Assembly (NCBI GenBank): GCA_030272155.1
Contig: CP126201.1
Span: forward strand, 1,773,501 to 1,837,500
Source of the DNA: Tetradesmus obliquus
Lineage: Eukaryota; Chlorophyta; Chlorophyceae; Sphaeropleales; Scenedesmaceae
Direction: 5' to 3'
Length of the DNA stretch: 64,000 bases
The notes below the pieces were generated by a model. It did not search any database. It saw only the letters and a list, made by a program, of their open reading frames with translations, and was not told the DNA's origin. Shown here piece by piece: positions 5,166 to 64,000 of this stretch. The translations under genes were made by a program, and so were the position numbers. Each line of letters opens with the position of its first letter. The first letter of the stretch is position 1.

Positions 5166-6133
5166 ATGATGCACGACGGTCACCGGTTTACCAGGCTCTC
5201 CAAAGTGCTTGCTGTTGTGCTACTAGGCCTGTTCCTGGTCACATACTTCGCGCCATCCAGCAAAGAGTACCTCACACTCGTCCCTGGAAGGTATATATAG
5301 CTCTTTTTGGTGCTTGATGCACCCCCTTTGGCACAAGGCCAACACCACTGCTGCAGCACACATGCTGCTCTGCAAACCGTCAGCTGATCAAGCGCTTTGG
5401 GACTTGCAGGACGCTGCCATGTGTGTGGAACTTGATAACTGGAGGGCTGGTGTGCACCAATGTAGTAGAGGTAAGGACTGTCGTGCAGCAGCTGCGGCGT
5501 GCAGCAGCATGACTGACAGCAGCACAGCAGCACCTTGTGTGTCACCTGTGATAACGCCAGCATGCATCTGGCATACCACATTGCTCCACATTACTAGCAC
5601 TGATGTCTTAACGTCCGTTTCAACCCAGCAACCTGCAGCAGCTTCCACGTTGCAACGTGCATCCCTTGCCATCGGAACTGGCAATCCTGCTGCTGGCCCA
5701 CTGTCCTGCAGGTGCTGGTCATGATCATGGCGCTGCTGCTGCTGGCACGCATCATTGAGCCAGTGTATGGCTCCACTGAGTTCCTGAAGCTCATCCTGGT
5801 GGTGGACTTTGCAGCCAGCACAGCAACCTTCTGCATAGCGTACATCATCTTCCTGTCAGCGCCAGATGATCGGAAAGGACGGACACTGTGAGTCACTCAG
5901 CGGCAATGTTTGCAGATACATTGTAGGTGTGCACGCCTGAGCAGTTGCATGTCTGAGGCTGCGTCGCTGGCTTGAGCAGCTGCCTATTGTGTGTACCTGG
6001 TGTTACACAGCAGCTAGTCAGATGCTGCAGCACTACTCCATGGTGGCAGAACAGCTACTCTGTATGCTTGCTTGCAGCCTCGTATATGCACAGCCAGCTG
6101 GACAGCCGCCTCATGCCACGGGCTGTGCTCAAC

Positions 6134-6186
<53 letters not shown>

Positions 6187-7610
6187 AGGTACAAGGAGTT
6201 CAGCGGCTTCCATGGCCTGCTGGCAGCGCTGCTGGTGGCAGTGAAGCAGATCATGCCAGACCATGAGGTCATACTGGCAGGCTTCCTCAGGCTCAAAGCA
6301 GCGGTGAGCCTTGCGCTGCAAGGCAGAGCACACACAAGGCTGTGCTGCACTTCAGCAAATGTTGGCAGAGTTTGGCTTCGCACTGGCAGAAGATTATCAG
6401 AAGCCACGCCTGATTCATACGCTGCATCTACAAACCAAAACCATAGTTTGGTGCTGCACAGCAGGGTAGCTAAGGTGGCCAGCTGGTGGCTGCTGGTGTC
6501 AGCGGCGATAGCAGCAAGCGGAGACTTTGCAGAGCAGCAGCAACAGCAGCAGCAGCAGCAGCAGCGCAGCGACAGCTGCCGCGGTAGCAGCAGCAGCAGT
6601 GCTAGGAGCAGCCTGCAACATAGGCCATGCAGCGGGTACGATTTCAACATTGCTGGCCCAGCTGCTGCTTTGTCAGCAGCGGCCTTACAAATAGCCGCAA
6701 ACTTGTACGGTGCATTTCAAGCGAAGGAAGCCTGGGATGTGTCGTCTGTCCTCTGTATCACGGCATCTGTCCTACTACCTCAACCCCTCACCCTCCCCCA
6801 TCTGATTCCTGTGCTCCTCCGCTTCTCTGCTGTTGCTGGTGTGCACCGCAGCACTTCCCAAGCGTGTACGTGCTGGCCTCCACAGTGGTCATTGCAGCGC
6901 TGCAGTCATGGCACTGTCTGGCCTTCCTATACCTAGGCACCTACTTTGCATGGCTATACCTGCGCTTCTTCCAACACCAGCCAGAGACAAGCATCATGGG
7001 CGACCCATCCGAAGACTTCAAATTCAGCTCCTTCTTCCCTGCAGCAGCAGCAGGGCCGATTGATGCAGCTGCAGGAGTGCTGGGCAAAGTGTTCAGGCTG
7101 CGGCATGATGCACATGCGGAAGCAAAGCCGCTGCTGCCGACAGCAGCGACTGGCACACTGCTGGGGAGTAACGCTGTCGACGCCAACCGGCGGCGGTGAG
7201 TGACGGTTGCAAGGTGTTGCTTGAAAATGATGGGATAGCAGTACGGCAGCTGTGCGCTGAAATTATCTATCACCAGTTCTCAAAGCAGGGCCACAGGCTC
7301 ACCCACTAATGTACCAGACATAGCTCATGGGGTCTTGCTGCAGTCATAAGACCATTGCTGTGTGCTGTGCTTGGCTGCAGGGAGCGTGGTGCAAAGGCGC
7401 TTGAGGAGCGGCTGGTAGCCTTGCTGCTCTGCATCTGCACCAAACACTTGCTGCGCTGTGTGCTGCGTTTGCTGCAGGGAGCGTGGTGCAAAGGCACTCG
7501 AGGAGCGGCTGGAGATGAAGAAGATTGCGGATGCGCCAGTGGTGGAGTCGGCAGCAGCAGCAGCAGCCAGCGGGCTGCCGCACACCGGCAGCGGCTCGCG
7601 GCTGGCATGA
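5166..7610 (+). CDS. TMEM115: TMEM115-like Golgi multi-pass membrane protein (rhomboid-like fold)
   Basis: Six exons: 5166-5290, 5410-5470, 5712-5887, 6189-6303, 6852-7195 and 7478-7610. All phases agree and give 317 residues, near the family length. The N-terminus has a hydrophobic helix (about residues 13-28). The block TLPCVWNLITGGLVCTN is followed by a helix ending ARIIEPVYGSTEFLKL, the family hallmark. Further helices follow (FHGLLAALLVAVKQIM; VLASTVVIAALQSWHCLAF). The soluble tail carries FKFSSFFP and ends in a basic, Ala-rich stretch. TMEM115 proteins are rhomboid-like but not proteases, and act in Golgi organisation and retrograde traffic. Intron 3 ends in about 17 CTG units against the acceptor of exon 4. 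A truncated copy of exon 6 precedes the real one. ATG 5166 and 5169 are in frame; the first is used here. Confidence 0.9.
7380..7415 (+). repeat. Shadow copy of TMEM115 last exon (5' part)
   Basis: An acceptor TTGGCTGCAG is followed by about 34 bases nearly identical to the start of the real exon at 7478 (ERGAKALEERL). It then diverges at a GTAGCC. The spacing to the real exon is 97 bp. If the copy were spliced with that GT as donor, an in-frame repeat of ERGAKALEER is conceivable. Confidence 0.85.
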
Positions 7611-9933: not shown

Positions 9934-12900
9934 TTTGTCGTCTGCTCATATTGCTACAGCTGATCCTAGACTTCCCACCCAGCAGCGCAGTTCACTTGCA
10001 GCTTGCGTGTGACTGACCTGTCGGTTTCTTCCCTTTCTCCAGTTGCTGCTTGCCCCAGGTTCAAGCGCTTGGCTCTTGAACTGTTTGCATCAAGCGGTTG
10101 GATTTCATACATGAATTTTGTTTCTGCCCTGTCGCTTTTCTTCTTTGCCCCAGGTACTTCAAGCGCATGGGCTGGCCCACCAGCAGCATCTTAGCAGGGC
10201 GCAAGCCAGCCAGTGAGCAGGAGGAGGCCCAGGTCATCGACACACTGCAGGACTGGAAGACGGATAAGTACCAGCAGATGATCGGGTGAGCAGCACAGCA
10301 GTACAGCAGTACAGCAGTACAGGTCATACCGTGCACTGCAGTACACATGCAGCTCACAGACATGATGCAGGACTGAAAGACAGACAAGTACCAGCAGATG
10401 ATTGGGTGAGCAGCACAGCAATACAGCAGTACAGCAGTACAGCAGTACAGGTCATACCGTGCACTGCGGTACACATGCAGCTCACAGACACGCTGCAGGA
10501 CTGGAAGATAGACAAGTACCAGCAGATGATTGGGTGAGCAGCACAGCAGCACAGCAGCAAAGCAGTACAGCAGCACAGCAGTACAGGTCGTAGAGTGCAC
10601 TCCAGTACAGGCTTCGCTGATAGACACATTGCCAGACAGACAAGTACCAGCAGATTATTGGGTGGGCAGCAAACTAGAGGCAGGCAAGTTGAGTTATGTC
10701 GTGCTGTGTTGTTATGTGTGGGCGTGGCGCAGGTGTGCAGCAGGAGCAGCCTGTGCTGCACATGTAGGCTGTGGTTCCCGCTAGCTATCGTGAAGGATAT
10801 GTGTGACTGCATCACTGACATCAAGTCATGTTGTGCAGGTTGTGCTGGCTGCTGCTGCGTACTACAAGTTGTACAGCACATAGTACATGCTGCAAGCGAC
10901 TGCTTGCATGGGATAGCCATGTCATACGGCCGTGCTGCTGTGTTGTTGCTGCTGCTATTGCCTTCGCGCCTCAGGCAAGCAGCAGTGCTGTGCTGTACAT
11001 CACGCTATATGCAGCCGGACAACAAATGCACATGCAAATTCTGCGACTGAGAAGGTGCTGGCATATCCATGCTGTACCCACTGCTGCTGGTGGTGCTACT
11101 ACTGCTTCCACGCCTGCTGCCGACGCATCGTTTAGATTGAAGTCTGATAACGCATGACCGAACAACAAATTGAACATTCGACATTATACAGCCCTCGTAC
11201 TGAAACATCCCAGGTGTGCATTGTGCAGAACAAGAACTTGACAGTCACTGCCTGTCTGGACATCGCCCTGCCGGCGTGAATAGACCTGAACCTGTTTAAT
11301 TAGAACGTTTCGTTAAATGTCGGACAATTTGGAGCAACTGCAAGGCACTCAACAGCAGGCCGCCTTTAGCATGATGGCTTTACATTGGATTTGGGTCCTG
11401 AGGGCGTGCATGCATGCACGCCCCGATCACAGGTGCCTAATGCATGCTTTATGTATTGAACTCGCGTTTGCATGCTCTCGCTTGCCGTGCATGGGTCGAG
11501 ATCCACCGCACAGAGATGCCGGCCCGCCTGGGCGTGCATGCCTGCACGCCTTGATGCAAGATCCGACAAGTGCAATGGCAAGAAGCTGTTTTGCAACATT
11601 TGCTGCTACTCCTCCAAGGTTGCAGCAGTGTCCCGGTTGATAGCGCACTTTTACCGGCCCGGAGCTATGGATAAGACGCCAAAGTCTCAACTTGCAATGA
11701 CAGGGGTGCCAGCTCAGATGAGAACAGGCCTGGAGGACAGAAAGGTACCAGCAAGTGACCAGTGTTCCTTACGCATACAAGGTGGTATTCATAACCTTGC
11801 AACTTGTGTGCAGGTCTGGCGAGGTACTGCCGCGCCCCAGCGTGCTGCAGCTGATGGAATAGCGCAGCTGCCACTTACGTCACTTACGGTTGTCGTGTGT
11901 TGTGCCAATGATGTTGTGCAGGTCTGGCGAGGTGCCGCCGCGCCCCGGTGTGCTGCAGCTGATGGATGATGCGCGCGCAGCAGGCCTCAAGGTGGCAGTG
12001 TGCAGCGCAGCCACCAAGAGCAGTGTGGTGTTCACGCTGAAGAACTTGCTGGGAGAGCAGCGCTTCAACAGCCTGGACTGCTTCCTCGCAGGTGGGTGAG
12101 GGGGCCGCCTCCTGAGGCTCAGCTGTAGTATGCGATTGTCCAGCTGGGGCAGCGCCGAGGCCAATGCTGCAGGCGTTATTTCACTTGTTGCCTAACATAT
12201 CTTGCGCAAATTGTGTGAAGCACGTGCTGTGAAAGGCGACGTGCACACAACATACTCAAGTCTCCCACCACCAAAGCCAGCCCTTGCAGCTGTGCCAGCT
12301 GTCCACAGCCAGCTGTTATATTTTCAATTCATATGTTTTTGTAGGTGACGATGTGGACAAGAAGAAGCCAGATCCTGCAGACTGTGTAGTGGTGTAAGCA
12401 AGCTGCTCACAGCCACCTGTCAATTCGAATTACGTTCTGCAGGTGATGACGTGGACAAGAAGAAGCCAGACCCCAAGATCTACAACGTAGCTGCGCAGCG
12501 CCTCGGGGTGGACCCTGCAGACTGTGTGGTGGTTGAAGACAGCACCATCGGCCTGCGGGCAGCGCTGGGGGCAGGCATGCGCTGTATCATCACCTACACA
12601 CCATCAACCAAGCAGCAGGTGAGCTACCGTCTGACACGCCACAGGCGCAATATTAGAAGCTGCGCCCTGCAAAGCAACTGGACAACCATGCCAGCTTCTG
12701 TGCTTGCATAGGGTCAGCACGTAAGGATTCCTGAGGCTGTGCTTTGCCAACAATCATGCTGAGAGCGAGAGCACTAGCTAGCAGCGACAGCAGTGCATTT
12801 CCAGCAAGTTGTGCTGCTGCGCGCTTGGCTGCTGCATGCATGCAGGCTTTTGACGGTGCTGACATTATTTTGCATGAGCTTGGCGGCAATGTCTCACTGC

Positions 12901-13704: not shown

Positions 13705-13880
13705 ATGGCGACAGTCACGGTGACAGTGGCAGGATGATAGGGTGATGTTCACTATCACTGACAGTGCGGTGCTCTTTGGTTCACCCAACCGGGGCAGCAA
13801 CTGGTGAGCTGCAGGCAGCTGCGAGGTGCCTGGGAAGCCCGCGGCAGAGGGGACTGTAGTAGAGACAGGCTTTGGCTGAT
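13705..13880 (+). repeat. Downstream copy of the orphan terminal exon
   Basis: The end of the exon at 13460-13547 plus about 80 bp of its 3' flank recurs here (QDDRVMFTITDSAVLFGSPN, then the same stop and GCTGCAGGCAGCTG flank). The period is about 258 bp. A fragment with a stop downstream of the intact terminal exon fits the pattern seen in other genes. Confidence 0.85.
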
Positions 13881-14088
13881 GGTGCGCTATTCGTGTTGCA
13901 TGGTCGTGCTCTGTGATCCTGTCACCCTGAGTGGTGGAGCTGAGTGACTTCATGTTTAGGGCAGTGTAACGGTTGGTCTGCTATCCCTGAGACGCCATGA
14001 CAAAGGAAAGGAGACTGCTGATTGTGATGATGTGTTGCGAGAGCATCCTTGTGTCTACAAAGCCGCCACACTTGATCCAAGCTCAGCA

Positions 14089-14511: not shown

Positions 14512-16490
14512 ATGTTGAAAGCTACCTCAAATTCACAGTTACAGAGCGGGGTACACCGCAGCAGGCACGGGGCATGTGCACTTGCCCCTGTACAACAGCA
14601 GCGCTGCTCATTTGCACAACCTCTACAATCCAGGCCAGCACCATCCTTCAGCAGCAGAGCATTACAAAACAACTGCTCCACTAGCATCTGTAGTCAACGC
14701 ACGAGCAGCAACACCAATGAGGCTCTGCCTGCTATGCTAGCTGGCGTGGTGGTTGGGACAGCAGTTGCTGCACTGCAGTGGCTGGGCCCAGCAGTTCCTG
14801 CAAGCCACGCAGCAGACTTGAACCCCTACCAGGAAGCCAAGCAGATGGTATATGGGCCCACGGCTGATGGCAGCATACGTGGCTGCCCCAGCAATGTCAA
14901 CCCCAACTGTATCAGCACAGGTAAGGATGGTAACAGCTAGAGGCAGGTCTCTTCATGTGGCAGCGGAAAGCCTGCAGCATGCAAATAGAGCAGTGATAGT
15001 AGTCGAAGTGCTGCTGTCCTGGTCAGCAACAGCTTGTGTAGCGCCTGCTTGGGCCTATCAGTGGTTTGCCAATGTAGCTGGTGACTGACTGCCAGCACCT
15101 GACCAGCAGCTCATCTGGCATGGCAGTTGCTGATGTTTGTAGGCAGTGGCTGCTGAATCTGACATTGTCCTTGGTCTTGTGTTTGCGCAAAAGCTGCTTT
15201 TGTTGTGCCCTTGGCCGAACTCCACCAAGGATAAGGATTGGCCTTGGTAGTCCATGCATATCCAGCAGTCAAGCTCAACTCACTCATCTGCCTTGTCGCT
15301 GCGCTGCGCATGTTGATACGGGTGTGGACACCTGAAAGGCAGCATCAATGACGCATGCAACCCAGCCTGGCATTCAGAAGAAAAGCCTTTCAAAAACACT
15401 GACGCCTGCTTTGTTGCTGCATTGCACTTGTTCTGTTGCACCACACTGGCAGGCAGCATCAATGACGCGTACAGCCCAGCTTGGCGGTCAGGCGAGCCCT
15501 CCCCGGCACAAGCAGCTGAAGTGCTGGAGGATGTGGTGCTAAGTGAGCTGACTCATGTGGCTTAGAATTCACCCGTACTGCGATCAGTGTCCACTTGCAC
15601 TGGAGCTTATGCTGCTGTCTGGCGATCAAACAATGCATGCATATGCCTATGGCCATGTGTGACACTAGTAAGCAGCAGCAGCAGCGGTGGCAAGCTGCCG
15701 GAAAAGGTGTCTGCGTTGAGAGCAGAGCATGTGTGGGAACAAGTTTGATGCCATGAAGCTGTGACAGAAACAACGGATGCCGTGGCCACTTACAACAACA
15801 TGACTCCCCAGCCATCTGTGCAGATCATCCACAGCTGGGCACCCAAACCACGCACACATCACATGTCTTGTCAAGCTGCCCACTGCGCTGCTGTCTGCTG
15901 TGTCATCTTTCCCTACAGGCAAACTGGAAGGCGTGCGGCTGCGCTCCCTGTTGCTGCAGTCTGGTGCAGAGTACTGCATTTGTGTTGCCAAGCTGCCCAC
16001 TGTCCTGCTGTCTGCTTTGCTATCCGCCCCTACAGGCAAGCTAGAGGGTGTGCGGCTGCTGCGCTCCCTCTCCCTGCAGTCTGGTGCAGAGTACCGCACA
16101 TTTGGTGTACAGAGCCTCTTCAGCATGCTGCCCACTATGCTGCTGTCTGCTGTATTCTGCACTGCAGGCAGGCTAGAAGGCGTGCGGCTGCTGCGCTCCC
16201 TCTCCCTGCAGTCCGGTGCAGAGTACCGCGCATTCGGCGTGCAGAGCCTGTTCGGCGAAGACGTTATGGAGTTTGTCATAAAGCCAGAGTCTGTGCAGGA
16301 CCGCAAGTGGCAGGGTGACGTCCCGGGGCCGTTAGTAACGTACCGCAGCATGGCTGGCAGCGTCAAGTATGTGTGGCCGATCCAGCAGCCGCTGGGGGAT
16401 TTTGATGCACAGCGGAAAAGGTTGAAGCTGGTTCGGGATGAGCTGGGGTGGCAGATCATCGGCTGTGAACTGCTGGAGTGCTACCAGTGA
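14512..16490 (+). CDS. DUF1499-like thylakoid lumen protein
   Basis: Three exons: 14512-14920, 15453-15542 and 16168-16490, all in phase, 273 residues. The N-terminus is a bipartite plastid targeting sequence: a Ser/Arg/Gln-rich transit part, then a hydrophobic segment (LAGVVVGTAVAALQWLGPAV) ending ASHA before ADLNPYQ, a typical lumen cleavage site. The mature part has NPNCISTGSINDAYSPAWR near its start and YRSMAGSVKYVWP and RLKLVRDELGW near its end. This is the layout of DUF1499 proteins, whose role is unknown. I chose ATG 14512 because the targeting signal starts there; an in-frame ATG also lies at 14389. Exons 2 and 3 have upstream truncated copies, and the end of exon 3 has three downstream copies. 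Confidence 0.75.
15344..15395 (+). repeat. Shadow copy of DUF1499 exon 2 (5' part)
   Basis: Behind CACCTGAAAG, the string GCAGCATCAATGACGCATGC and onward matches the start of the real exon at 15453, with decay after about 30 bases. The spacing is about 109 bp. Confidence 0.8.
15920..16133 (+). repeat. Two shadow copies of DUF1499 exon 3 (5' parts)
   Basis: Copies begin behind CTACAG acceptors at 15920 and 16036, before the intact exon at 16168. They read KLEGVRLRSLLLQSGAEY and KLEGVRLLRSLSLQSGAEYR and lose homology after about 55 and 90 bases. The intronic flank CTGCCCACTGYSCTGCTGTCTG is repeated with them, so the duplicated unit is intron tail plus exon head. Confidence 0.92.
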
Positions 16491-16539: not shown

Positions 16540-17075
16540 GTACCGCAGGTACAACTCAAGTTGAAGTTGGTGTGGCGTGAAGCTGGTGAGGAATGAGCTA
16601 AGGTGGCAGGTTATTGGCTGTGAGCTTCTGGAGTGCTATCAGTAGCTATTTGTCTTACTGCGCTGTGGCTGTTCCACTGGCAGGAGGATCGCTGCTGTTG
16701 GGCCTTGCATGATGCTGGCGCCAGTCACAGTGTTATTGTTGCACCCGTTGCCTTTTGGGATGGCCCCGCCTATCAAGCCATAGCGTGGCAGGCAGCATCA
16801 AGTATGTGTGGCCGATCCAGCAGCCTCTGGGGGACTTTGATGCGCAGCGGAAAAGGTTGAAGCTGGTTCGGGATGAGCTGGGGTGGCAGATCATCGGCTG
16901 TGAACTGCTGGAGTGCTACCAGTAGTATGGCGCAGTGCTGCAGCTGCTCAGCTTGCAGGAAGAGTGTTGTGCACCTCAGGTACATGGCAAGTTGAGGTTG
17001 GTGTTGCGTGAAGCTGGTGAGGGGTGAGCTGGGCTGGCAGATCATCGGCTGTGAACTGCTGGAGTGCTACCAGTA
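16540..17075 (+). repeat. Three downstream copies of the DUF1499 terminal coding segment
   Basis: Past the stop, the end of exon 3 recurs near 16550-16644, 16787-16925 and 16980-17075, each ending in a stop after the ELLECYQ-type end. The middle copy is nearly perfect over about 135 bases starting at AGGCAGCATCAAGTATGTGT. Possible uses are alternative 3' ends or none. Confidence 0.92.
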
Positions 17076-21789: not shown

Positions 21790-21835
<46 letters not shown>

Positions 21836-21906
21836 GCTGCAGGTGATTGAGGCGTTCAAGATCCTGACCAGTGACCCTCAGGTGAAGGCCATCCTGGTCA
21901 ACATCC

Positions 21907-40066: not shown

Positions 40067-40149
<83 letters not shown>

Positions 40150-40220
40150 AGGCATGGACCCCATCAGCCGCCGCTACGTGTGGGAAGTCATCCAGTAGCC
40201 AAACTAATGTTGACCTTATA

Positions 40221-52112: not shown

Positions 52113-54939
52113 TCAATGCCGCTGCTGCTGCTGCTGCTGCTGCTGTTGCTGTCGGAACATCATCTGTTGCTGCAGCTGCTGTATCTGCTGCGACGTCATC
52201 TGCGTTGGCAGCTGGGCTGGAAGCTGCATGTGTGCAGGCAGCTGCTGCTGCTGTTGCTGCATCTGGGGCTGCTGCTGCTGCATCGGATGCTGCTGCATTG
52301 GCTGCATGCGAGGGAACTGCTGCTGGGCCTGCATATGCTGCTGCTGCTGCTGCTGGGCCTGCATGTGCTGCTGCTGCTGCTGCTGCTGCTGCTGGCTTTG
52401 CTGCTGCAATGTGGGCTGGGGCAGTGATGGCAGCATCTGCTGGGGTGCAGGCTGCTGCTGCTGCTGTTGAGAAGGCAACATCATGTGCTGCTGCTGTGGC
52501 TGCTGCTGCGGCTGCATTGTGGGCATTGCCGGCTGTTGCTGTTGCTGCTGCTGCTGCTGCAAGGGCACTGTGCCTGCTTGAAGGTGCTGCTGCTGCTGCT
52601 GAACAGCCTGCGGTGATGCCAGCTGCTGCTGCCGCTGCTGAACAACAGCCTGCGGGGACGCCAGCTGCTGCGGCTGCTGTGGCTGCTGCTGCTGCTGAAC
52701 AGCCTGTGGCGAAGCCAGCAGCTGCTGCTGCTGCTCCTGCTTGACTGCCGCTGCAACAGCCTGGGGAGAAGACAGCTGCTGTGGCTGTGCAGCAGGGTGC
52801 GCCGCTTCTTGCACCTGCTGCTGCTGCTGCTGCTGCTCCTGCTTGACTGCCGCCTGCTGCTGCTTCTTGTCATGCCGTATCTGCAGCATCCGCTGCCGCT
52901 CAGCCGCCCTAGATGCCTCAAGATCATTGGCAGGATCATACAGCTCTACACGTGGCACTCCCACTGCTGCTGCTGACGATGGTGCATCCGGCTGCTGCTG
53001 CTGTGAAGTTGCAAATGCTGCCAGTGCTGCTTCTCCAGGCTGCTGCAGCTGCACCTCCTCTGGTGCTTCCTTCAGGTCCTGCATGTCATAACAAGACAAG
53101 CAGCAGCTGTGTGAGTGTTACGTAATGTCACTGACAGCATCCAGGTATGTGACAGGCATCCAGGTGTTTGGCTGCTGCGCTGGTGATTCCCTCAGGTCCT
53201 GCAATAGAACCAAGGCAGCAGCGGGGGTTCATGACACATTCTCAGTGTGGGTCATAGCCTAGGTCTTGTGATGGCATCATAACAGTTGCATCCCAGCCCC
53301 AGGTCGCCACACACAACCCCCAGGCCCCAAACCCCAAGCCATTCCTGCAAGTCCTGAGCCCCACCTTGCCGCACTTCCTGCAAGCGCGCATCGAGTGTCC
53401 CTTTATGGCATCGTTCCAGACGCACCCCAGCCCCAGGTCGCCACACGATACCCTGCACCCCCATTACCCCAAACCCCTTTCCTGCAAGCCCTGAAACCCA
53501 CCTGCCGCACTTCCTGCAGGCGTGACTCCAGGTGTCCCTTTATAACATCATACCAGTCGCAGCCGAGGCCAAGATCTCCGCACACGCGCATGGCGTATGT
53601 GTCTGGTGTGTTCTGGGGGTTGGCGACGTCCCACAACAGCTCGTCGCGGAACACCCTGTCATTCAGGCGCGCATACAGCTGCAGCAGCAGGGCAATAGCA
53701 GGACAATCAGCCAGCAGCAATTGAAACAGCAAGCCCACAGCGCTGAAGACTCCAAACAGACAGCTTGTGTGTATACACGTTCTGGCTGAGACACAAGTGA
53801 GCCGCCCGCCTGCACTGTTACTGGCAGCGCAACCGCATGCATGAAACAGTCCTTTGCCGACTGCTGCAGGCTGCTGCAAAGCCTCCTCACACTCTCACAG
53901 ATGCCAGCACATGTGCCTTCACAGCTCTGTCAATCTGCAGAGCTGCTTCCGCTGCTGCTGCTTCCGCTGCTGCTGCTGCCACCCACCTGCAGCGCCACCA
54001 GCTGCTCCCTGCCCGGGTCCTGCCAGTCCTTATAGGGCTTCAGCCCGGCTGTTATCTGGTCCTGCACCGTCCTGCAAGCAGCAGCAGCACGTTTCTGATG
54101 ATATATGCTTGATGCAAAGCAGCCTAACCGGCACTGGCAGCAGCAGAGCATGGGCCTGACTGCAGCTGATGATAGTGAGGCAACTGCTTTTTAGGCTTGC
54201 TTCTGTGCTACCATTCATGGAAATTATATCGCTGCTGCTGCTGTTGGTGGTGCAGCAGGAGGCCGCGGTTGCTCACTTCTCCAGGTTGCCTGGCAGTGCC
54301 GTCTCCAGCAAAAACCGCGAAGCAGCCGGCTTCACAGACCACTGCTTGTCTGCGGGACACTCGGCAAACAAGTGAGCAGCAAGAATCAGCAAACACAGGT
54401 GGTGAAAGCTGGAGATTACTTGCCATCAAGTGGATGGAGCAAGTGAGCAGATGCTCTGAGAGCATATCTGTCTGGCTGTAGCTACGCTGAGCAGCCTGGA
54501 AACGGGCAGAGGGAGGTAAGCACAATCAGCAGTGCTGTCTGGCCCATCTGCCCAACCGCCCAGGAGGCTACAAGTGCAATTGCTTGCAGGAAGGTGCCAA
54601 GGCTCACCTCCATGTCGGTACAGGAACATCTGCACAGTCATTGTAGCAGCAGTGACGGCAGCAGCAGCAACAGGGGTTGACATGATGCAGCATCACACAG
54701 CCAACCGCCACAGGCAGCCTACCAGGCAGCGAAATGCGTTCAGCGATGTTCTCGAATAACGTTGTAGTCCTGCTCACCTCACGCAGCTGCTCATGATCGC
54801 GGTCCACACCAATGTAGATAGGCACCAGTGGTACTGACTCCTTTGTGGTCTCTGGTACCGGCTTGCCGGCTGCTGTATGCGCTAACTTGCTGATCCTTTC
54901 AACAAATCCCGTGGCGGATTGCTTGGTTGAAGTCTCCAT
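52113..54939 (-). CDS. SNF5/SMARCB1-like chromatin remodelling subunit with long polyQ C-terminus
   Basis: Exons on the minus strand: 54939-54778, 54629-54608, 54349-54277, 54071-53987, 53678-53502 and 53078-52113; all phases match, 494 residues. SNF5 proteins are core subunits of SWI/SNF complexes. Repeat 1 is divergent (PLVPIYIGVDRDHEQLRE, then MFLYRHGDKQW and FLLETALPGNLEK). Repeat 2 is clear: LNDRVFRDELLWDVANPQNT, then DTYAMRVCGDLGLGCDWYDV. A basic stretch with RAAERQRMLQIRHDKKQQQ follows. The last ~220 residues are almost only Gln with Ala, Pro, Met, His and Leu. Two exons are very small (22 and 73 bases). Fragments of exon 5 (donor side) and exon 6 (acceptor side) are duplicated between them. 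Confidence 0.83.
53160..53460 (-). repeat. Shadow copies between SNF5-like exons 5 and 6
   Basis: 53160-53200 copies the head of exon 6 (acceptor TTGCAG, then GACCTGAGGGAATC). Around 53255-53320 and 53365-53460 are decayed copies of the exon 5 tail (CGDLGLGCxxYDxI and ARLQEVRQ with donors). They follow the usual polarity for a minus-strand gene. Confidence 0.85.
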
Positions 54940-55831: not shown

Positions 55832-55874
<43 letters not shown>

Positions 55875-58729
55875 TCATCCCCAGTGACGGCATCACCAGC
55901 GTGAGCCTGTGGGACACTGTTGACCCTGCCATCCCTCCGCCCGCTGCGTTACCTTATTTTTGTTGTTGCTGCTGCTGATGCTGCTGCTGCTGCTGCTGCT
56001 GCCAGGTCATCCCCAGCGACGGCATCACCAGCGTGAGCCTGTGGGACACTGCTGACCCCGCCAGCCTGCAGGAGTGGCTGGCAGAGAACTTGGGCAGCGA
56101 CTGCAGGAGCGAGCTGCATGAGGTGCGGCTGGGTGTGTTTCACACTTTTGTGACAGAGACGTAGCAACTGCTGACATGCAAGCAGGCTGGCAGCTCAATC
56201 GTTTACCATTGATCAGCGACGACGGGTGTTTGCAGGCGGAGGGTCAGGGGCGGGCGGCTCTGCTGTGAGCTGAACATCAGCTCCTTCAACTTGCCTGTTG
56301 CTCAGGTCACTGCGTGCGTTTGGACGAGGTTGCCACTGTGCCTGCCACTGCTGCTGCTGCTGCAGGTGCAGGAAGATTTCACTTGGGGCATGTCGCTGGA
56401 GCTGGCTCGCATGCGCGCAACAGAAAAGGTGTGCAGCCGCAGCAGCAGCATGCACCTGAACAGCAGCAGCTGCAGCGTTAGACTGCAGCACAGAACGCAG
56501 CAAGGCATAACCGTGACCGGGTTTGGTTTCAGCATGGCATATGCTTCAGCAGCAGCAGCAGCAGCAGCAGTATCAGCATCTGCTTGTGCGCTGCATGCCA
56601 GCACCGCTCAGCAGCTTGTCGGCAGCTGAAGTGCAGCCCACATCAAAGTGACTTGTGCCCTGGCCACTGACCAGCATGTCTGTGCTGTCTCTTGATGGAC
56701 AAATGGTCGTGTGACTGCTATTGCTGCGGCCTTTTGGATGCCGTGCAGGTTACTGATGGATCCATGAAGACGATTGGTGCGCTGGGCGAGAGGACCAGCA
56801 GAGCAGCAGAGGTGGTGGCAGCGGGCCTCACCACAGCAGTAGGCTCCACGCAGCAGAAGGTGAGGCAGCGAGGCTTGCTCAAACAGGCTTGCCAGCACGT
56901 AGAGTGTGAAGACAGTGTAACTGGTTTCACCACACAGCAGCAGGCTCGATGCAGCAGAAAGCGAGAAAGCGAGTCGGTTGCTCTGCCAGTAGGATGCTCG
57001 GGATACATGTTGGAACGTTGCCGTGCCGGTGCTGTGCTGCGCTGAAGTGATCGCCCGTTGAGAAGGCCGTGTTCACCTGTTTGCATGTTGTCCTGATATT
57101 GTCAATTTGGCGTGTGCGGCCGCTCACTCTTCCTGACCATGATCGCTGTGATACTGCTGCTCAAATCCTTTTCTTCTTGGAAAAACTACAGCTCGAGGCA
57201 TGGGACCAGCGCACGGGCGTGCTCACAAGCGCCAAAGAGACTACGGCTGCGCTGCAGCAGCGCGTGATTGGCGCCATGGCGAAAGCGGCGGAGAATGAGC
57301 GCGTACACAGCGTGGTGTCCAACGTGTCAACAGGCGTCAGCAGCAGCTGGTGGGTGGCGTATCAGATGCCGTGTTATTGTTTGAACAGGCAATGCTAAGC
57401 TGCGTGTACAATGCAACGTAAGGGCTGTTCATGGTGCAGAACGCGGTGTCCAACGGGTCAACAGGTGTCAGCAGCAGCTGGTGGGTGGCGTGTCACATGC
57501 CATTCTATGCAGCAGCTCATGCACGGCGGCTCTGTTGATGTTAATCTTTGGATGTGAACCTCGCCAGAAATCATGGTGTTGCTGCTGCTGCTGTTGCTGC
57601 TGCCGGCTTTGTCTGTTGCTGGCTGTGACCGCAATGGCTGTACCTGCAGGGTTGAGGTGTCCAGTGCGTGGGGCAGCGGCTTTGGGACATGAATGCAGTG
57701 ATGCTGCTGTTGCTGCTGCTGACGGTGTCTGTTGCTGGCTGCACCTGCCACGCCTGTACCTGCAGGGCCAAGGTGTCCAGCTGGGTGGGGCAGCGAACTG
57801 GCATGTTGTATGTACTGCTGCTGCTGCTGCTGCTGCTGGCATTGCCTGTTGCTGGCTGCAACTGCTACACCTGTACCTGCAACGCCTGTACTTGCAATGC
57901 CTGCACCTGCAATGGCTGTACCTGCAGGGCCAAGGTGTCCAGCTGCGTGGGGCAGCGGCTCGGGGACATGAATGTACTGCTGCTGCTGCTATTGCTGCTC
58001 CTGGCCTTTTCTTTTGCTGAATGCACCTGTAACGCCTGTCCCTGCAGGGCCAAGGTGTCCAGCTGGGTGGGGCAGCGGCTGGGGAGCATGAACGTGGTTG
58101 ATGGAGCTGCCGCTGCTGCTATTGCTGCTGGTGGATGCTCAAATTCACGCCTGTTATCAAATTCAACCCTGTGCTGTGTTGCTTGCAGGGCTAAGGTGTC
58201 CAGCTGGGTGGGGCAGCGGCTGGGGAACATGAACGTGGTTTATGGAGCTGCTGCTGCTGCTGCGATTGCTGCTGGTGGTTGCCCAAATTCACGCCTGTTA
58301 TCAAATTCGACCCCTGTGCTGCGTTGCTTGCAGGGCCAAGGTGTCCAGCTGGGTGGGGCAGCGGCTCGGGGACATGAATGTGAATGATGGAGCAGATGAG
58401 TACGGCCCGCAAGCAGGCGGCGCAGGGGTGAGCAGCAAGCAGCAGCGCAAGCTGTGTCCACAAGCTGAGCCTTACTGTACATGCTATGGGAGATGATTGC
58501 TGCGGAAAGATCAGCCCAGAAACACACTTGCTGATGCGAGAAGGGACTGCATGTTTGCTGCGTGCAGGCATGCGCTCGAAGCACAGTATGCATGCAGTGG
58601 TATGTGTGAGGCTGCCTGCAGCAGGTGTTGCAAATTATCAAGGTGCTGACAGTGCATGGGTGTCCTGCTGCTGCTGCTGCTGCTGCTGCTGCCACAGGCC
58701 TACACTCCAAACAGCTACAGTGCAGCGCC

Positions 58730-58765: not shown

Positions 58766-59404
58766 CAGCAGCCCGCAGCACACGCTGAGCAGCAGCACAG
58801 GCGGCGGCGCGGAGCGAGCCGACTCCACTGACAGGTGCGGCATGCACATGTGGGTGTGTCAAAATGTGCATGATGCAGTTTTGCCATGCCCTGCAGGGGC
58901 ACCTGTCTCGCTACCTGCGCACAAGTTGTGAGCATGCAAGCAGCTCCACCAGCACAATCGATACACCTGTAGCGAAAGCGTTCCTTGCATGGGCATGTGG
59001 TATGCGTGCACACTCATGTTTCAGGGAGGCACTGCGCTATATTGTTCAGCTTTTAATGCTCATTGCCCTTGCTTTGCATCTGGCTCACCTTGCATGGCGC
59101 TTGCTGTTGATTTGGCTCAAAGTGCATTGTCCTTGCTTTGAGTTTGGCTCAGAGTGCATTGTGTTCTGTGCTGCTGTTGTGCCCTGCAGGCGTTTCACCT
59201 TCACACACAGTATGCTGGCTGCCCCTTTGCGTGTGTTGCAGGCCTTTCACTTTTTAAGGCGGCATGCTGCCTGACCCCTGTGCTGTGCCCTGCAGGCCCC
59301 TCACCTTCACCGACAGTATGCTGGCTGACCCCTTGGGCTCGCCAGACAGCAGCAAAGCAGCGGCTGCAGCTGGCGGCTCCCCACCCAAGGCAGCTGACAG
59401 CTAA
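55303..59404 (+). CDS. Protein of unknown function, helical, 326 residues
   Basis: Nine exons in phase: 55303-55419, 55531-55605, 56006-56122, 56366-56428, 56749-56859, 57192-57349, 58334-58427, 58698-58834 and 59296-59404. I do not recognise the family. It starts MSSSSGPPTQLVLAVHTVEA. A middle block reads SLWDTADPASLQEWLAENLG and VQEDFTWGMSLELARMRAT. Then come helices (LGERTSRAAEVVAAGLTTAV; QRTGVLTSAKETTAALQQRV), a repeated amphipathic segment SSWAKVSSWVGQRLGDMN, an acidic patch, a polyQ run with YSSPQHTLSS, and the end FTDSMLADPLGSPDSSK. The Ala/Thr/Val-rich helices could bind membranes or form bundles; that is inference. There is no signal peptide or transmembrane helix. Exon 7 has five upstream shadow copies; exons 3, 6 and 9 also have copies. 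Confidence 0.75.
55838..56005 (+). repeat. (CTG)n and shadow copy of unknown-gene exon 3 (5' part)
   Basis: A CTG run abuts an acceptor at about 55873, followed by 60 bases of exon 3 (VIPSDGITSVSLWDTVDPA). A second CTG run (55967-56001) abuts the intact exon. Confidence 0.93.
57425..58333 (+). repeat. Shadow copies of unknown-gene exon 6 (tail) and exon 7 (five heads)
   Basis: 57436-57480 copies the exon 6 tail and GTGGGT donor. Exon 7 heads (RAKVSSWVGQRLG) start behind CTGCAG or TTGCAG near 57651, 57768, 57929, 58048 and 58189 before the intact one at 58334. Spacing is 117-161 bp and CTG runs lie between. The later copies are nearly perfect over 45-55 bases. Confidence 0.95.
59188..59295 (+). 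repeat. Two shadow copies of unknown-gene exon 9 (5' part)
   Basis: Behind CCCTGCAG at 59190 and TTGCAG at 59240 are decayed versions of the exon head (RFTFTHSMLAAP; FHFLRRHAA), about 55 bp apart, before the intact exon at 59296. Confidence 0.85.
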
Positions 59405-60905
59405 GCAGCAGCAAAGCAGCGGGTGCTGCTGGCAGCTCCCCACCCAACCCAGCTGAGAGCTAAGCAGCAGCAGCAGCTACTGGTTTTCAATGTATTGACA
59501 ACGTTAATGCGCACAACAGAGTTATCAGATGCATGCACGCAGTTTGTACGAGATGACAGCCCTGACTTTTGCAAGTTCTCCACACTGTAGCAGTTGCTGC
59601 ACGTATGTTTGCAAACACCAATTGGTCAACTCTGGCTAGCCCTGCCAGGTGGCGATTGCTTACGTTGTGCGTGAGGATGGTTCTTGCCAAGAGATGTGCC
59701 ATGCTTGTATTTTGATCATTGGATTACTGCAAAGATGTATTGCAGTTGATCATCAGCTGGGGCACCTGCCCTTGTATAAGCGTTGAACAGGCGGTGGCCT
59801 CGAGACACTAGAGGTTGCAGACTGTCCAGCATCCACGCTGAGCAACACCAATATGTTACAAGGCACGTATTGTACAATGCGGTTTCAAGAGCCTCACCCC
59901 AGGCCCCAGCCCAGCCCAGCGCGCCGCTTTTCGTTCTCATGGCAACACCATGCCACACTGCCACTCTTGACACCATACCAGGCTCACCAGAAGAAGCTGT
60001 GCATGCAACTGCCATGGCTGCCAGCAGAGCTGCAACGCGACACCACTGCACAGCGCACCAACACCATACCAGTCTGCAGCTGTTTAAACCATACCAGGCT
60101 TACCAGAAGCCCTGTTTGACCAAGGTCCCCGCCCCGGGGCAGTACCCTCACTTCTAATATCCAATTGTAGTTGAGCTCGCGGCGCAGTTTCAGCTCCAAA
60201 CCTGACGCAAGTACTCAGACCCGGGCCCAGCTGCAGCAAACGCTGGCAAGCAAAACCGTCTACTACACGGCCTAGTAGGCCGCAGGTGACACGATGCTGT
60301 TCAAGCAACAAGTAGGGACACGTGGGTTTGGGCACTGTTTAAAGGCAATGTGAGGCACAAACACCCAAATGAACGCAGCATGACCAGTGATTGTGGAGAC
60401 CAGACAGCTCACAAAACGTCATGAAAGCAGGGATATCCTGCTCACATGCATGCACACAAGGACGGCAGAAAACCAGCTCCAATGTTGCAACCTCCTTGTT
60501 TCAAAACATCATTGGGATTGAGGATCCTCAACCTTTCATGAACAACACAAGGATGCGACTGTTCACAAAGTTCCGACATACGTTCTGCCACATTGCTCTG
60601 CAGCCGTCCCCAAACGCCCCAAAACCTTGAAACCAACCTGTCACAATGCAACGCAATGCCCAACAACCCCGGCTAGCCACCAACCCCAAAACTCAAACAT
60701 ACGCACAATGCAGCAGTGCTCCCTTCTCAGCCTCCCCCAGTGGCACGATGCCGTCAGCGCCGTTGCTGTCGGCATATAGTGTTGTCACTAACAATTATGT
60801 AGCCTCACAGCAGCTCACAAAGCTCCAGCGCGGCGCATGGCCAGGAGTGATGTTGCTGCGGCTTAATGCGTAACACAATGAATGTCAGTGACAGTTACGA
60901 CACCA
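59405..60905. other. Intergenic region, no gene recognised
   Basis: It begins with a second copy of the GCAAAGCAGCGGSTGCWGCTGGC stretch just past the stop (59410-59460). The rest shows short direct repeats such as ACACCATACCAG (59970 and 60062) but no credible exon on either strand. Confidence 0.5.
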
Positions 60906-61951
60906 ACAGTAGCACATGGCTCAGCACACACACTCCTCCATGCAATAACAGCTCGTACATAGACATGTAGTATAGTAGCATAACAACGGCGTGCATGATG
61001 ATGGCAACAACAGTAACATGAGGCTTATTCATACTTCTGCGTTGTAGGCTCCACCACCGCAGCCAGCTCATGAACAGCCATAAACCGTAGTACATAATGA
61101 TGCTGCTGCTGTTAGTAACAGTAACACAAGGCTCAGCACTCATACTGCTGCAATTGACACTCCACCAGATGAACCAGCTTGTACATGGACATATGGTATA
61201 GAGCACAACAACGACGTCGACAATGATGGCAGCAACAGCAACACAGGCTCAGCACTCATACTCCTTCATGCAACACCACATGTGTTATGGCTCCACCAGC
61301 GCAGCCAGCTCAACAATAGCCATAAAGTGTAGTACATACAATGATGATGCTGGTGGTATCAGCAACGCAAGGCTCACACTCTTCCATGTTGGGCTCCACC
61401 AGCGCAGCCAGCAGCCCGTGAACAGCCTTGTAGCACAAAACACAACGACAACATTGCCGTTACCAACAGTAACAGAAATGCATCAATCAGTACTCATACT
61501 CCTCCATGTTGGGCTCCACCAGCGCAGCCAGCTCGTGAACAACCATATAGTGTAGTACATAACAACGATGATGCTGTTGGTATCAGCAACGGAAGGCTCA
61601 GCACTCCTACTCCTCCATGTATGGCTCCAACAGCGCAGCCAGCTCTGAAATAGCCATGTAATGTGATACATAACGTTGATGATGCTGCCAGTAACAGTAA
61701 CACAAGGCTCAGCACTCATACTGCTCCGTGAGGGACTCCACCAGCACAGCCAGCTCGTGAACAGCCATACAGCACAGAACACAACGTCAACGATGCTGTT
61801 AGTAACTGTTTTCAAGCTGAGCAACGCAAGGCTCAGTACTCACACAGCCCCATGTTGGGCTCCACCAACACAGCCAGCAGCTCGAAACAGCCTTGTAGCA
61901 CAGAACGCGACAACGGCAAAGCCGTTACTAGCAGTAACAGCAACGCAAGCC
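60906..61951 (-). repeat. Array of about 8-9 downstream copies of the LRR gene's terminal coding segment
   Basis: Past the stop of the minus-strand LRR gene, about 45 bases encoding ELAALVEPNMEEY plus 3' flank (GTTACTGTTACTAACAGCAT on the minus strand) recur roughly every 110-130 bp, down to about 60910. Copies nearest the gene (for example 61495-61535 and 61848-61885) are best preserved. Both the coding end and the 3' UTR are in the unit. Confidence 0.9.
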
Positions 61952-64000
61952 TCAGTAATCATACTCCTCCATGTTGGGCTCCACCAGCGCAGCCAGCTCA
62001 TGAATAGACACCTGCATAGAACCAGGCGCCCCGCGCGGCCCCAGCTGCTCCAGGCTCTGCTGTAAGCCCTCTAGGCTCAGGCACAGGTCCCTGTCTTCAT
62101 CGCACAGCCAGCACAGCTCCTGCAGGTGCGGCAGCGCTGCAAACCCGTGCATCACATGCAGCACCGCGTCAGCACAGTCTGCCAGCTGTTCTGCAGTATG
62201 CTCGGTCCAGCGAGTGCCCACATACTCATCATACCAGCCCCAGTGCAGCGACAGCTGCCGCAGATGCGTCAGCTGCCCAATGCCTGCAAACACAGCATGC
62301 TCCAGCGGCCAGTCTAAGGTCAAACTGGTCAATCCTGCAAGCTTCTGCAGCTGCTTGGTGAGCCCTATTGTCAGCGGGCCAAACACCCCGCCCTCATACG
62401 GCCCAGAGCCTTCATACAAGCCCAGGCTGACAACCGGCAGCTGAATCCACACCGCTGCTGACTCATTGAGCCGCTGAATGCTCCAGTGCGTGAACTCGCC
62501 GCACTGCTTGTAGCCTCCCTCGTAGAAGAGTTTGACCGAAGTCAAACTTGTCAGCTGAGTGAGGTCCTGCAGCCGCCTTGGAGGAATGGTGCTGGGGCGC
62601 ATCGCCAGGGACTGCAGCTTGGTGAGCCCTAGCAGCGGGTGCAGGTCGAAGCACTGCCGCAGCCGCAGCTGCAGCAGGGTGGCTGGCAGCTCATCGTCAG
62701 ATACCAGAGGCACGCTGGCTGACAGCGTCAGCTTGGTCAACGCGGTCAAATGTGACAGCTCCAGCGGGTACTGCTGGCGGCCCTGCAGCACCTGCAGAGC
62801 AACAGCACGAAAGCAGAGGGTGGGTGAGACGAGCAGGTGATGACGCAATACTTGTTCATGCATGCATGCATGCCACCAGTCTGCAGGTATCACAAAGCAC
62901 TGCAGAAGCCTGACTGCGGCTGATGCAACATGCTAGACCTTACAAAATTCTTTTACCTCCAATCCTGTGGTAGGGCTACCATGGTTACCTGCATCGCCGT
63001 GCTGCAAGCATGTTGACCCTAGCAGCACTCACCAAGCGTGCGCCTCACACCTATGCCTACAAACCCCTGCCCGGCAAGCTCAACATGCAGCACATCCCCT
63101 CAGCTCACCCCCAAGCAAGCCTCAACGCGCTCACCTCTTCCCCCTCTATCACTCCAAACGCAATGGCGCCCTCATCCTGCTCTGACCCTGCATCTGCTCC
63201 CAGCTGCAGCTCCTGCAGCCCTGCAGGAAGGCACTGCTGCAGATGCTGCAAGCCTGCCATGTCCCCCATGTGCACTGGCAGCTCCAGCCGCGTTAGCTGC
63301 TTCATGTTGTACACACAGTCCTGCAAGAAATCTTGCAAGAGAGGCCATGTTGCGCCAGCTACGTTTGAATCCACGTTACATGGCTGGTGCAGCACGAGGC
63401 TGCGCAGCGCAGTCATTCCTGCAAGCGTTGCGCCTGGTGGATCTGGCGTGAACTGTGCTGGAGCGCCGAGCCCCTGGTCGTGCTGCATCCGCAGCAGCAT
63501 ACCCAGTTCTAAGTGCGTCAGCTGCGCTGCCACGCCTTGCAGTGACGCTGCTAGGCTGCTGCAGCTGTCGGCGAAAACACCACGAGCAGCGAAGCCGCGC
63601 AAGCTGGTCACTGCAGCTGCTGCTGCTGGTGGTGGTGGGTGCGTTGTTCCTGCAAGCGTCGCCAACCCTGCGCCAATGGCTGCAGTAACGGCATCTATTA
63701 CAGCAGCCTCTGCTGTTGGCACTCTCCAAAAGCAAGCATCTGCTCCTGACAACACGACTTCTATGTCGTGCAGAATGATGCTGTTTCGCAGCACCCAGGC
63801 GACGAACTGCTGTGTCCTGGCAAGGGTGTCAGCTGACAGCTGCACTGCCAGCCTGCCTGCAGTCTGCTGATGCACTGCTGCTGCATGCCTGCATGACACT
63901 TGCAGCAGCTTGCAGACCACAAGAGGGTCTTGTGCGACACTTGGGTGTGACAGGATAGTTGTCCAGGCCTCATTTTCTGGGTCTGATGCTGTTGCTGCGT
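61952..64000 (-). CDS. Leucine-rich-repeat protein, F-box/LRR-like, 5' end outside window
   Basis: Two exons are visible: 64000-63135 (open at the window edge) and 62791-61952, joined in phase (EGEE to VLQGRQQ). The N-terminal part reads ENEAWTTILSHPSVAQDPLV then VCKLLQVSCRHAAAV, similar in layout to the F-box-like heads of large LRR families in green algae. About ten irregular LRRs follow (for example LTHLELGMLLRM, MTALRSLVLHQP, LTALTKLTLSAS, LTSLTSVKLFYE, LAGLTSLTLDWP, LTHLRQLSLHWG, LPHLQELCWLC). The end is HELAALVEPNMEEYDY. Such proteins bind other proteins; no function can be assigned. The F-box reading is an inference. The gene's last 45 coding bases are copied in a 1-kb array downstream. 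Confidence 0.72.
62792..63134 (-). other. Intron of the LRR gene
   Basis: The donor is at 63134-63129 (GTGAGC on the minus strand) and the acceptor CTCTGCAG ends at 62792. It contains a short CATGCATGCATGC palindrome near 62857-62871. No shadow exon is seen. Confidence 0.7.

What the first reader, a model, noticed from the sequence alone, without database searches (positions are those of the whole stretch)
5166..62791. Shadow exons: pervasive truncated tandem copies of exons in almost every gene
About 80 partial exon copies are visible around intact exons in 12 of 13 substantial genes. They follow a strict polarity on both strands: copies upstream of the intact exon retain acceptor plus exon head; copies downstream retain exon tail plus donor, or exon tail plus stop for last exons. 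Typical unit length is 100-150 bp and always includes adjoining intron. A tandem duplication with one breakpoint in an exon and the other in the neighbouring intron gives exactly this and leaves one functional exon, so selection explains the polarity. The abundance implies an ongoing process. I do not know a named description of this phenomenon.
Basis: partly seen in the sequence, partly recalled or inferred. Interest (0 to 1): 0.9.

Follow-up and report, generated by a model that had tools for sequence, protein, structure and literature searches.

The report
Partial exon copies beside intact exons
In the green alga Tetradesmus obliquus, many genes carry extra, broken-off copies of exon edges in the neighbouring introns; they are real, far commoner at exon edges than chance would give, and look like leftovers of an unusual kind of DNA duplication rather than working parts.

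Summary
The window is Tetradesmus obliquus (one spliced gene matches protein OEZ86_013519 at 100%). At a strict threshold it holds 40 partial exon copies, or runs of copies, at 28 exons. In 264 kb from 17 contigs, 99 of 100 boundary copies obey the stated polarity. That polarity is geometry: any tandem duplication with one break in an exon and one in the adjoining intron gives it, so it is no evidence of selection. The surprise lies elsewhere. Duplications confined to introns or intergenic DNA are rare (6 and 6 events against 86 exon-edge events, where random placement predicts more intron-only than edge events; a second program gives 42 edge, 13 intron and 3 intergenic arrays). Units are centred on splice sites more tightly than random placement allows. 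Copies decay mostly like neutral DNA, but 28 of 98 exon-copy pairs differ at 14.7% of third codon positions and at no first or second position. I propose error-prone break repair templated by a homologous exon, sometimes from a diverged allele. This mechanism is unproven, and some results speak against its simplest form. A sister assembly would test it.

The parts
7357..7415 (+). head copy upstream of exon 7478-7610 (DUF1751 gene)
   Evidence: d 98, 91.5%
10350..10671 (+). run of tail+donor copies downstream of exon 10154-10285 (HAD hydrolase gene)
   Evidence: d 120, 81.5%
11807..11858 (+). acceptor+head copy upstream of exon 11922-12091
   Evidence: d 108, 92.3%
12294..12375 (+). acceptor+head copy upstream of exon 12443-12618
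   Evidence: d 104, 75.6%
13729..13925 (+). tail+donor copy downstream of exon 13386-13543
   Evidence: d 260, 83.3%
15864..16124 (+). two head copies upstream of exon 16168-16490
   Evidence: d 117, 78.5%
16578..16689 (+). tail+stop copy downstream of last exon 16168-16490
   Evidence: d 155, 75.4%
16782..17081 (+). further tail+stop copies of last exon 16168-16490
   Evidence: d 435, 88.5%
18806..18914 (+). tail copy of succinyl-CoA ligase beta exon 18600-18759
   Evidence: d 125, 82.7%
20279..20939 (+). run of six acceptor+head copies upstream of succinyl-CoA ligase beta exon 21082-21250
   Evidence: aligned; matches
21386..21699 (+). two tail+donor copies downstream of exon 21082-21250
   Evidence: d 228 and 447
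21804..21905 (+). acceptor+head copy upstream of exon 21947-22090
   Evidence: d 104, 95.1%, copies adjacent
22264..22396 (+). tail+donor copy downstream of exon 21947-22090
   Evidence: d 248, 77.3%
22798..22845 (+). weak copy of last-exon tail of succinyl-CoA ligase beta (exon 22610-22741)
   Evidence: d 113, 79%, below the bit-50 cut
24897..25040 (-). head copies upstream of exon 24722-24835 (zinc-finger gene)
   Evidence: d 100, 85.6%
25267..25627 (-). run of tail copies downstream of exon 25827-26113
   Evidence: d 263, 77%
26193..26371 (-). head copies upstream of exon 25827-26113
   Evidence: d 128, 70.6%
29663..29835 (+). two tail+donor copies downstream of proteasome alpha exon 29519-29605
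   Evidence: d 98, 75% over 173 bp
30050..30263 (+). two nearly identical acceptor+head copies upstream of exon 30328-30528
   Evidence: d 136, 99.1%
34013..34126 (+). head copy upstream of exon 34194-34348 (ABC-transporter-like gene, my reading)
   Evidence: d 139, 86.8%
34600..34653 (+). head copy, exon part identical over 51 bp, intron part not similar, upstream of exon 34696-34789
   Evidence: d 93
34855..34916 (+). tail+donor copy downstream of exon 34696-34789
   Evidence: d 117, 90.3%
35480..35587 (+). tail+donor copy downstream of exon 35266-35410
   Evidence: d 125, 78.7%
35682..35772 (+). head copy upstream of exon 35808-35968
   Evidence: d 89, 74.7%
36485..36566 (+). tail+donor copy downstream of exon 36242-36419, intron part not similar
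   Evidence: d 141, 92.7%
38191..38255 (+). tail+donor copy downstream of exon 38001-38086
   Evidence: d 160, 86.4%
38569..38732 (+). copy of a whole predicted exon 38319-38417 (exception to the pattern)
   Evidence: d 285, 77%
38836..39385 (+). run of head copies upstream of exon 39466-39625
   Evidence: d 122, 72%, 593-column alignment
40102..40195 (+). head copy with CTG run upstream of exon 40272-40468
   Evidence: d 120, 98.9%
40580..40917 (+). tail+donor copies downstream of exon 40272-40468
   Evidence: d 221 and 348
49935..50335 (-). run of head copies upstream of exon 49686-49880 (SNF5-family gene)
   Evidence: d 146, 82.9%
53271..53446 (-). tail copies downstream of exon 53502-53678
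   Evidence: d 134, 76.7%
55835..55934 (+). head copy with CTG run upstream of exon 56006-56132
   Evidence: d 132, 95%
57434..57501 (+). tail copy downstream of exon 57192-57349
   Evidence: d 131, 88.2%
57583..58248 (+). run of head copies upstream of exon 58334-58427
   Evidence: d 116, 74.8%, 709-column alignment
59175..59229 (+). head copy upstream of exon 59296-59404
   Evidence: d 106, 85.5%
60905..61780 (-). run of tail copies downstream of last predicted exon 61952-62791
   Evidence: d 212, 69.4%, 941-column alignment

Best explanation
These are mostly nonfunctional by-products of local DNA-break repair anchored at exon edges. Shown: short direct duplications (median spacing about 134 bp) crossing one splice site and centred on it, leaving one intact exon, afterwards decaying mostly as neutral DNA. 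Inferred: a break at an exon edge is repaired one-sidedly. The broken end uses the matching exon of a sister or homologous chromosome as its only usable homology, copies through the splice site some 60-100 bp into the intron, then cannot re-anneal because introns differ too much, and is end-joined. The result is a second exon edge next to the intact exon. When the template is a diverged allele, the copy is born with synonymous differences and a differing intron part. Breaks inside introns find no homology and leave no duplicate; copying that stays inside the exon re-anneals cleanly.
For: Exon-edge excess: 86 exon-edge events against 6 intron-only and 6 intergenic ones, where random placement gives an edge:intron ratio of 0.67-0.85; TRF: 42 exon-containing, 13 intron, 3 intergenic, 2 exon-only arrays. 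Splice-centred geometry: exon part sd 15.9 against 23.3 expected, intron part under 45 bp in 9% against 43% expected (0 of 5000 simulations as extreme; 67 events). Coding-type divergence: 28 of 98 pairs have no first/second-position difference but 67/457 third-position ones (simulated 6.6%, p 0.00025), 64 of 67 synonymous against 76% for random changes; the third-position share falls from 0.74 in pairs under 7% divergence to 0.46 in pairs of 14% or more (p 2.4e-6). Exon part detectable alone in 78 of 86, the longer intron part in 23 of 85, where one clock predicts 40-59 of 85 at three assumed indel rates; exon divergence and intron similarity uncorrelated (Spearman -0.03). For two copies and one gene searched, only local matches exist in the genome. 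A related Scenedesmus strain is reported as likely diploid with separated haplotypes (PMC7955037, passage).
Against: The simple two-template version predicts more third-position bias where introns are dissimilar. By intron-similarity score there is none (0.547 dissimilar, 0.59 similar, p 0.39); by a p-value grouping there is some (73/114 against 237/449, not tested). With a higher assumed third-position rate the key test weakens (p 0.004 and 0.0145). Whether this strain is diploid or has such alleles was not tested. In 64 of 97 pairs the intron part is similar, as plain tandem duplication predicts. Breaks spread evenly in exons would not by themselves give exon parts peaking at 50-70 bp. No template was seen directly.
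Confidence: 0.35

Rival explanations
1. Ordinary short tandem duplications (fill-in of staggered breaks and end joining) strike at random; those crossing one exon edge are harmless and stay visible because the intact exon is conserved, while intron-only ones decay out of sight or are deleted again.
For: Indels in the exon part of copies are not multiples of 3 in 30 of 35 cases. Splice dinucleotides intact in 79 of 90, about what 7% neutral divergence per site would leave (my arithmetic). In the 54 pairs with 25 or more aligned intron columns, divergence is 0.069 at positions 1+2, 0.177 at position 3, 0.161 in introns, near the neutral 1:2:2. Small tandem duplications at breaks are an established class (PMC8355091, abstract and introduction).
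Against: Intron parts of 120 bp or more were detectable alone in 8 of 16; at that rate a few tens of intron-only events should be seen (my estimate), 6 were. Splice-centred geometry. Pairs with third-position differences only. Exon parts outlast intron parts.
Confidence: 0.3
2. Duplications arise anywhere, but copies containing exon sequence are refreshed by gene conversion from the intact exon (same chromosome or homologue), so only exon-edge copies persist.
For: Exon parts better kept than intron parts, no shared clock between the two parts, exon parts with 0-2 differences beside dissimilar introns (34696, L011 701, L005 4959).
Against: Conversion from the local exon would reset all codon positions and does not by itself leave third-position-only differences; a diverged donor is still needed. 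Does not explain the depletion of short intron parts.
Confidence: 0.15
3. The assembly is chimeric: reads of two diverged haplotypes or strains were merged and exon edges doubled, since exons align and introns do not.
For: Third-position-only differences, in some pairs with dissimilar intron flanks, are what merged haplotypes would give; unit size is near short-read length (inference).
Against: Runs of 3-6 units with graded divergence (10350-10671, 20279-20939, 57583-58248), frame-breaking indels in the copies, and more than 10% divergence at first/second positions in 20 of 98 pairs are not made by merging two haplotypes.
Confidence: 0.1
4. Some copies are working alternative exon ends (alternative last or first exons) kept by selection on the protein.
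For: 28 of 98 pairs without first/second-position change, 64 of 67 third-position changes synonymous; splice dinucleotides intact in 79 of 90.
Against: All 3 indels within the 28 pairs shift the frame; spacing is a multiple of 3 in 31 of 98, no preference; among the least diverged copies (under 4% at positions 1+2) splice dinucleotides are intact in only 27 of 34, where about 98% was expected.
Confidence: 0.08

Closest known systems
Intron gain in potato RdRp by a tandem duplication crossing one intron-exon boundary (Ma, Lan and Niu 2016, PMC4974935; abstract and introduction read)
   Same: One duplication crosses an intron-exon boundary (first intron, second exon), the 'head/upstream' geometry seen here.
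   Different: A single case in which the copy gave a new intron; here many cases, at both exon ends, and copies are mostly not used as exons in my gene models.
Small tandem duplications from fill-in of 3' overhangs at breaks (Schimmel et al. 2021, PMC8355091; abstract and introduction read)
   Same: Short direct duplications; a general repair product, described there as the most common short (<100 bp) insertion in the human genome.
   Different: No preference for splice sites is described in the parts read; units here are mostly 100-165 bp.
Intron gain by duplication of coding sequence with a proto-splice site (Drosophila near intron pairs, PMC2891723, abstract read; Rogers model as cited in PMC4974935)
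   Same: Local duplication inside genes with splicing hiding one copy.
   Different: There the duplicated piece is coding sequence and makes a new intron; here the piece spans an existing boundary and lengthens an existing intron.
Tandem exon duplication / mutually exclusive exons (recalled)
   Same: Exon copies side by side.
   Different: Whole exons with both splice sites; here only 6 of 107 copies include both.

Membership tests
Short tandem duplication | Direct orientation, local | tested here: met
   108 direct against 12 inverted window self-matches, 98 of the direct ones within 1 kb
Short tandem duplication | Copies adjacent, whole unit similar | tested here: inconclusive
   Intron part of unit similar in 64 of 97, unclear in 13, not similar in 20
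Short tandem duplication | Placement independent of gene structure (my expectation for the class) | tested here: not met
   86 exon-edge against 6 intron-only events; 42 against 13 arrays with TRF
Intron gain by tandem duplication of an AGGT exon segment | New intron made of exon sequence | tested here: not met
   Intron-side sequence is copied in 64 of 97 pairs; in the one gene with a known protein the copies lie within introns or beyond the last exon of the spliced product
Tandem exon duplication | Whole exon with both splice sites | tested here: not met
   6 of 107 copies, some at doubtful exons
cDNA-derived exon copies | Exon-exon junctions in the copy | tested here: not met
   3 of 91 above the random 95% score, 4-5 expected; one of them scored high (50) and was not followed up
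Satellite or minisatellite arrays | Many similar units unrelated to exons | tested here: not met
   Copies match the adjacent exon; satellite-like arrays (L005, L016) are separate
Functional alternative exon | Open frame under constraint and spliced use | tested here: inconclusive
   Third-position-only subset, but frame-breaking indels; no RNA data

The most novel reading that the evidence does not exclude
A splice-site-anchored duplication process: something tied to exon edges (homology limited to exons during repair between diverged homologues, or chromatin or RNA processing at splice sites) repeatedly copies about 60 bp of exon plus about 70 bp of intron beside intact exons across the genome. 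It lengthens introns and leaves fossils of old exon alleles that could be read as a record of past recombination.
Probability: 0.4. Interest if true: 0.85.

Novelty: new variant of a known kind. Interest (0 to 1): 0.7.

Why it matters
If duplications really prefer exon edges, a mutational process knows gene structure, which is not expected of break repair. It would give a source of intron growth and of raw material for new introns and exons. Each copy is an untranslated fossil of an exon edge, so mutation spectra, allele replacement and gene conversion could be read within one genome. It also poses a question for splicing: copies keep an AG upstream of the true acceptor in 41 of 45 and a GT downstream of the true donor in 38 of 45, yet in the one gene with a known protein they are not used.

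Tried and rejected
Rejected: polarity as evidence of selection (geometric necessity). cDNA or mRNA origin (3 of 91 junction matches above the random 95% score). Paralogue origin: for two copies and the succinyl-CoA ligase gene only local matches are found. In-frame use of copies: spacing modulo 3 is 31/29/38. Sequence motif at the exon-side breakpoint: none evident by eye in the base composition. Branch-specific codon test with multiple copies: ambiguous because copies have nested ages. Junction microhomology was not measured. First gene-finder version drifted into CAG repeats and was replaced. Word searches in two Scenedesmus obliquus genome papers found no mention of introns or exons, and in a Sphaeropleales comparison none of 'tandem' or 'intron'. 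Ten library searches showed, among the titles and abstract openings listed, no description of genome-wide partial exon copies; only the listed rows were seen and the library lacks most subscription papers.

Rows dropped before counts: matches under 50 bits, repeats over 1500 bp apart, low-complexity matches; 26 matches with both copies in predicted exons; 20 shadow-to-shadow and 15 redundant matches when counting non-exon events; 1 of 99 boundary copies lost at boundary mapping (98), 1 more for short flanks (97); geometry test limited to spacing 80-200 bp (67 of 86). The coverage profile used gene models before masking.
Full report
WHAT WAS CHECKED. The window lies in G000:C11:1773501-1837500, a genome of 104.7 Mb in 17 contigs. 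Splicing nine hand-picked exons between 17749 and 22741 gives a 423-residue protein identical to OEZ86_013519 of Tetradesmus obliquus; the assembly size fits GCA_030272155.1 as tabulated in PMC12571836 (passages). I built a simple gene finder, seeded from that one gene and retrained on 264 kb: the window with its two flanking 10-kb stretches (5 kb of one withheld) and 18 remote 10-kb stretches. On its own seed it returned 8 of 9 exons exactly and called about six partial copies as exons. A masking step then removed predicted exons that are truncated copies of a longer neighbour, and two loci were corrected by hand. Of 7 spliced window proteins given to Pfam (7 of 11 models, one cut to 310 residues, one the seed gene), 6 carry a family: DUF1751, HAD hydrolase, ATP-grasp/CoA ligase, zinc finger, proteasome, SNF5. 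The official annotation was not available except through that one protein.

THE OBSERVATION. Local direct repeats are abundant (87 in the window at 50 bits and under 1500 bp) and inverted ones nearly absent (1); Markov controls of all 21 sequences gave 0. Thirteen of 18 remote stretches show local direct repeats, five show none; exon-edge copies were seen in at least ten remote stretches (L005, L006, L007, L009, L010, L011, L013, L014, L015, L020). Of 107 non-redundant exon-derived copies in 264 kb, 46 are heads upstream, 53 tails downstream, 6 whole exons, 1 internal and 1 tail upstream. The 99 that fit belong to 72 exons. In the window: 22 heads, 18 tails, 1 whole exon, at 28 exons, several being runs of units.

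POLARITY IS GEOMETRY. If a unit with one end in an exon and the other in the adjoining intron is duplicated in tandem, the copy on the intron side is always truncated and the other always whole. The strict polarity (99 of 100 boundary copies) therefore confirms tandem duplication across one boundary and says nothing about selection.

EXON EDGES ARE PREFERRED. Coverage by local repeats is about 0.32 at splice sites, about 0.165 deep in introns and 0.12-0.14 deep in exons (models before masking). Counted as events, 86 exon-edge duplications stand against 6 intron-only and 6 intergenic ones, the latter including satellite-like arrays. Dropping units of the observed lengths at random on the same sequences, with neutral decay and the same score cut, gives edge:intron ratios of 0.67-0.85 and edge:intergenic 1.4-1.64. 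Intron parts of real copies are hard to detect alone (23 of 85, low complexity excluded; 8 of 16 if 120 bp or longer), which lowers the expected number of intron-only events to a few tens (my estimate), still well above 6. TRF (period 60-400) found 42 exon-containing, 13 intronic, 3 intergenic and 2 exon-only arrays, a smaller excess in the same direction.

GEOMETRY. Spacing of primary events has quartiles 117, 134.5 and 165 bp. The exon part peaks at 50-70 bp (43 of 99). For 67 events with spacing 80-200 bp, exon and intron parts are less variable and less complementary than a randomly placed unit would give: exon part sd 15.9 against 23.3, intron part under 45 bp in 9% against 43%, exon part of 80 bp or more in 12% against 37.5% (none of 5000 simulations as extreme). 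Part of this may be survivorship, since long repeats with short spacers are easily deleted; I could not test that.

FATE OF THE COPIES. In 98 exon-copy pairs mismatches are 154, 133 and 369 at codon positions 1, 2, 3 (about 2060 sites each). In the 54 pairs with a well aligned intron part the rates are 0.069 (positions 1+2), 0.177 (position 3) and 0.161 (intron), close to a neutral copy beside a constrained exon. Gaps in the exon part are not multiples of 3 in 30 of 35 cases. Splice dinucleotides are intact in 41 of 45 heads and 38 of 45 tails, in sum what neutral decay would leave. They do not track divergence, however: 27 of 34 in copies under 4% first/second-position divergence (about 98% expected), 37 of 37 at 4-10% (87% expected) and 15 of 19 above 10%. 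I read the copies as mostly nonfunctional.

WHAT DOES NOT FIT SIMPLE DECAY. (1) Exon parts outlast intron parts: 78 of 86 against 23 of 85 detectable alone, where one clock predicts 59, 51 or 40 of 85 depending on the assumed indel rate. Twenty of 97 pairs have no recognisable intron similarity, some with exon parts that are identical or nearly so (34696, 0 of 51; L011 701, 1 of 55). (2) Exon divergence and intron similarity are uncorrelated. (3) Twenty-eight pairs have no difference at positions 1 and 2 but 67 of 457 at position 3, 64 of the 67 synonymous. A neutral-from-birth simulation gives 6.6% instead of 14.7% (p 0.00025; 0.004 and 0.0145 if the third-position rate is raised to 2.57 or 3 times). 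The third-position share falls with divergence, 0.74 under 7% and 0.46 at 14% or more (p 2.4e-6). My inference is that part of the divergence arose while both stretches were coding: before the copy's birth, or by later replacement of the exon by another allele. Against a neat two-class picture, the third-position share does not differ between pairs with similar and dissimilar introns by score (p 0.39), though it is higher in the dissimilar group (73/114 against 237/449, untested).

MECHANISM. One-sided repair with exon-limited homology would give the exon-edge preference, the direct orientation, the intact exon, differing intron parts and synonymous pre-divergence in one stroke; separated haplotypes are reported for a related Scenedesmus (PMC7955037, passage), not shown for this strain. 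I give it 0.35. Plain tandem duplication with strong ascertainment is nearly as likely (0.3). Gene conversion, assembly chimerism and function follow.

KNOWN KINDS. The closest case is a single potato gene in which a duplication crossing an intron-exon boundary created a new intron (PMC4974935, abstract and introduction). Small tandem duplications as repair products are well established (PMC8355091, abstract and introduction). I found no description of a genome-wide, exon-edge-centred pattern among the rows listed by ten library searches (named under Tried and rejected); that library is incomplete.

Noticed in passing
L005 1-1135: Satellite-like array with 191-bp period, 84-91% identity.
   Followed up: no
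L016 1-3959: Satellite-like array with unit of about 275 bp, about 95% identity, filling 40% of the stretch.
   Followed up: no
window 9196-9933: Minisatellite-like run of about 110-bp CAG-rich units inside an intron of the HAD hydrolase gene; no exon part.
   Followed up: partly
window 31578-31775: About 200-bp element with 35-bp inverted ends (94%) flanked by G and C runs, possibly a small mobile element.
   Followed up: no
L017 640-10000: Long coding block that appears twice in the predicted protein and looks like a transposase (my reading, no search); no local repeats under 1500 bp in this stretch.
   Followed up: no
L008 4926-9326 and stretches L002, L003, L004: Multi-exon gene models without any local direct repeats at the threshold used, so the phenomenon is patchy between genes.
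   Followed up: partly
P0026 and P0095 (alignment A1, columns 331 on): Proteins from other algal sequence sets that end or change after the exon corresponding to 21082-21250, as if the following intron were retained.
   Followed up: no
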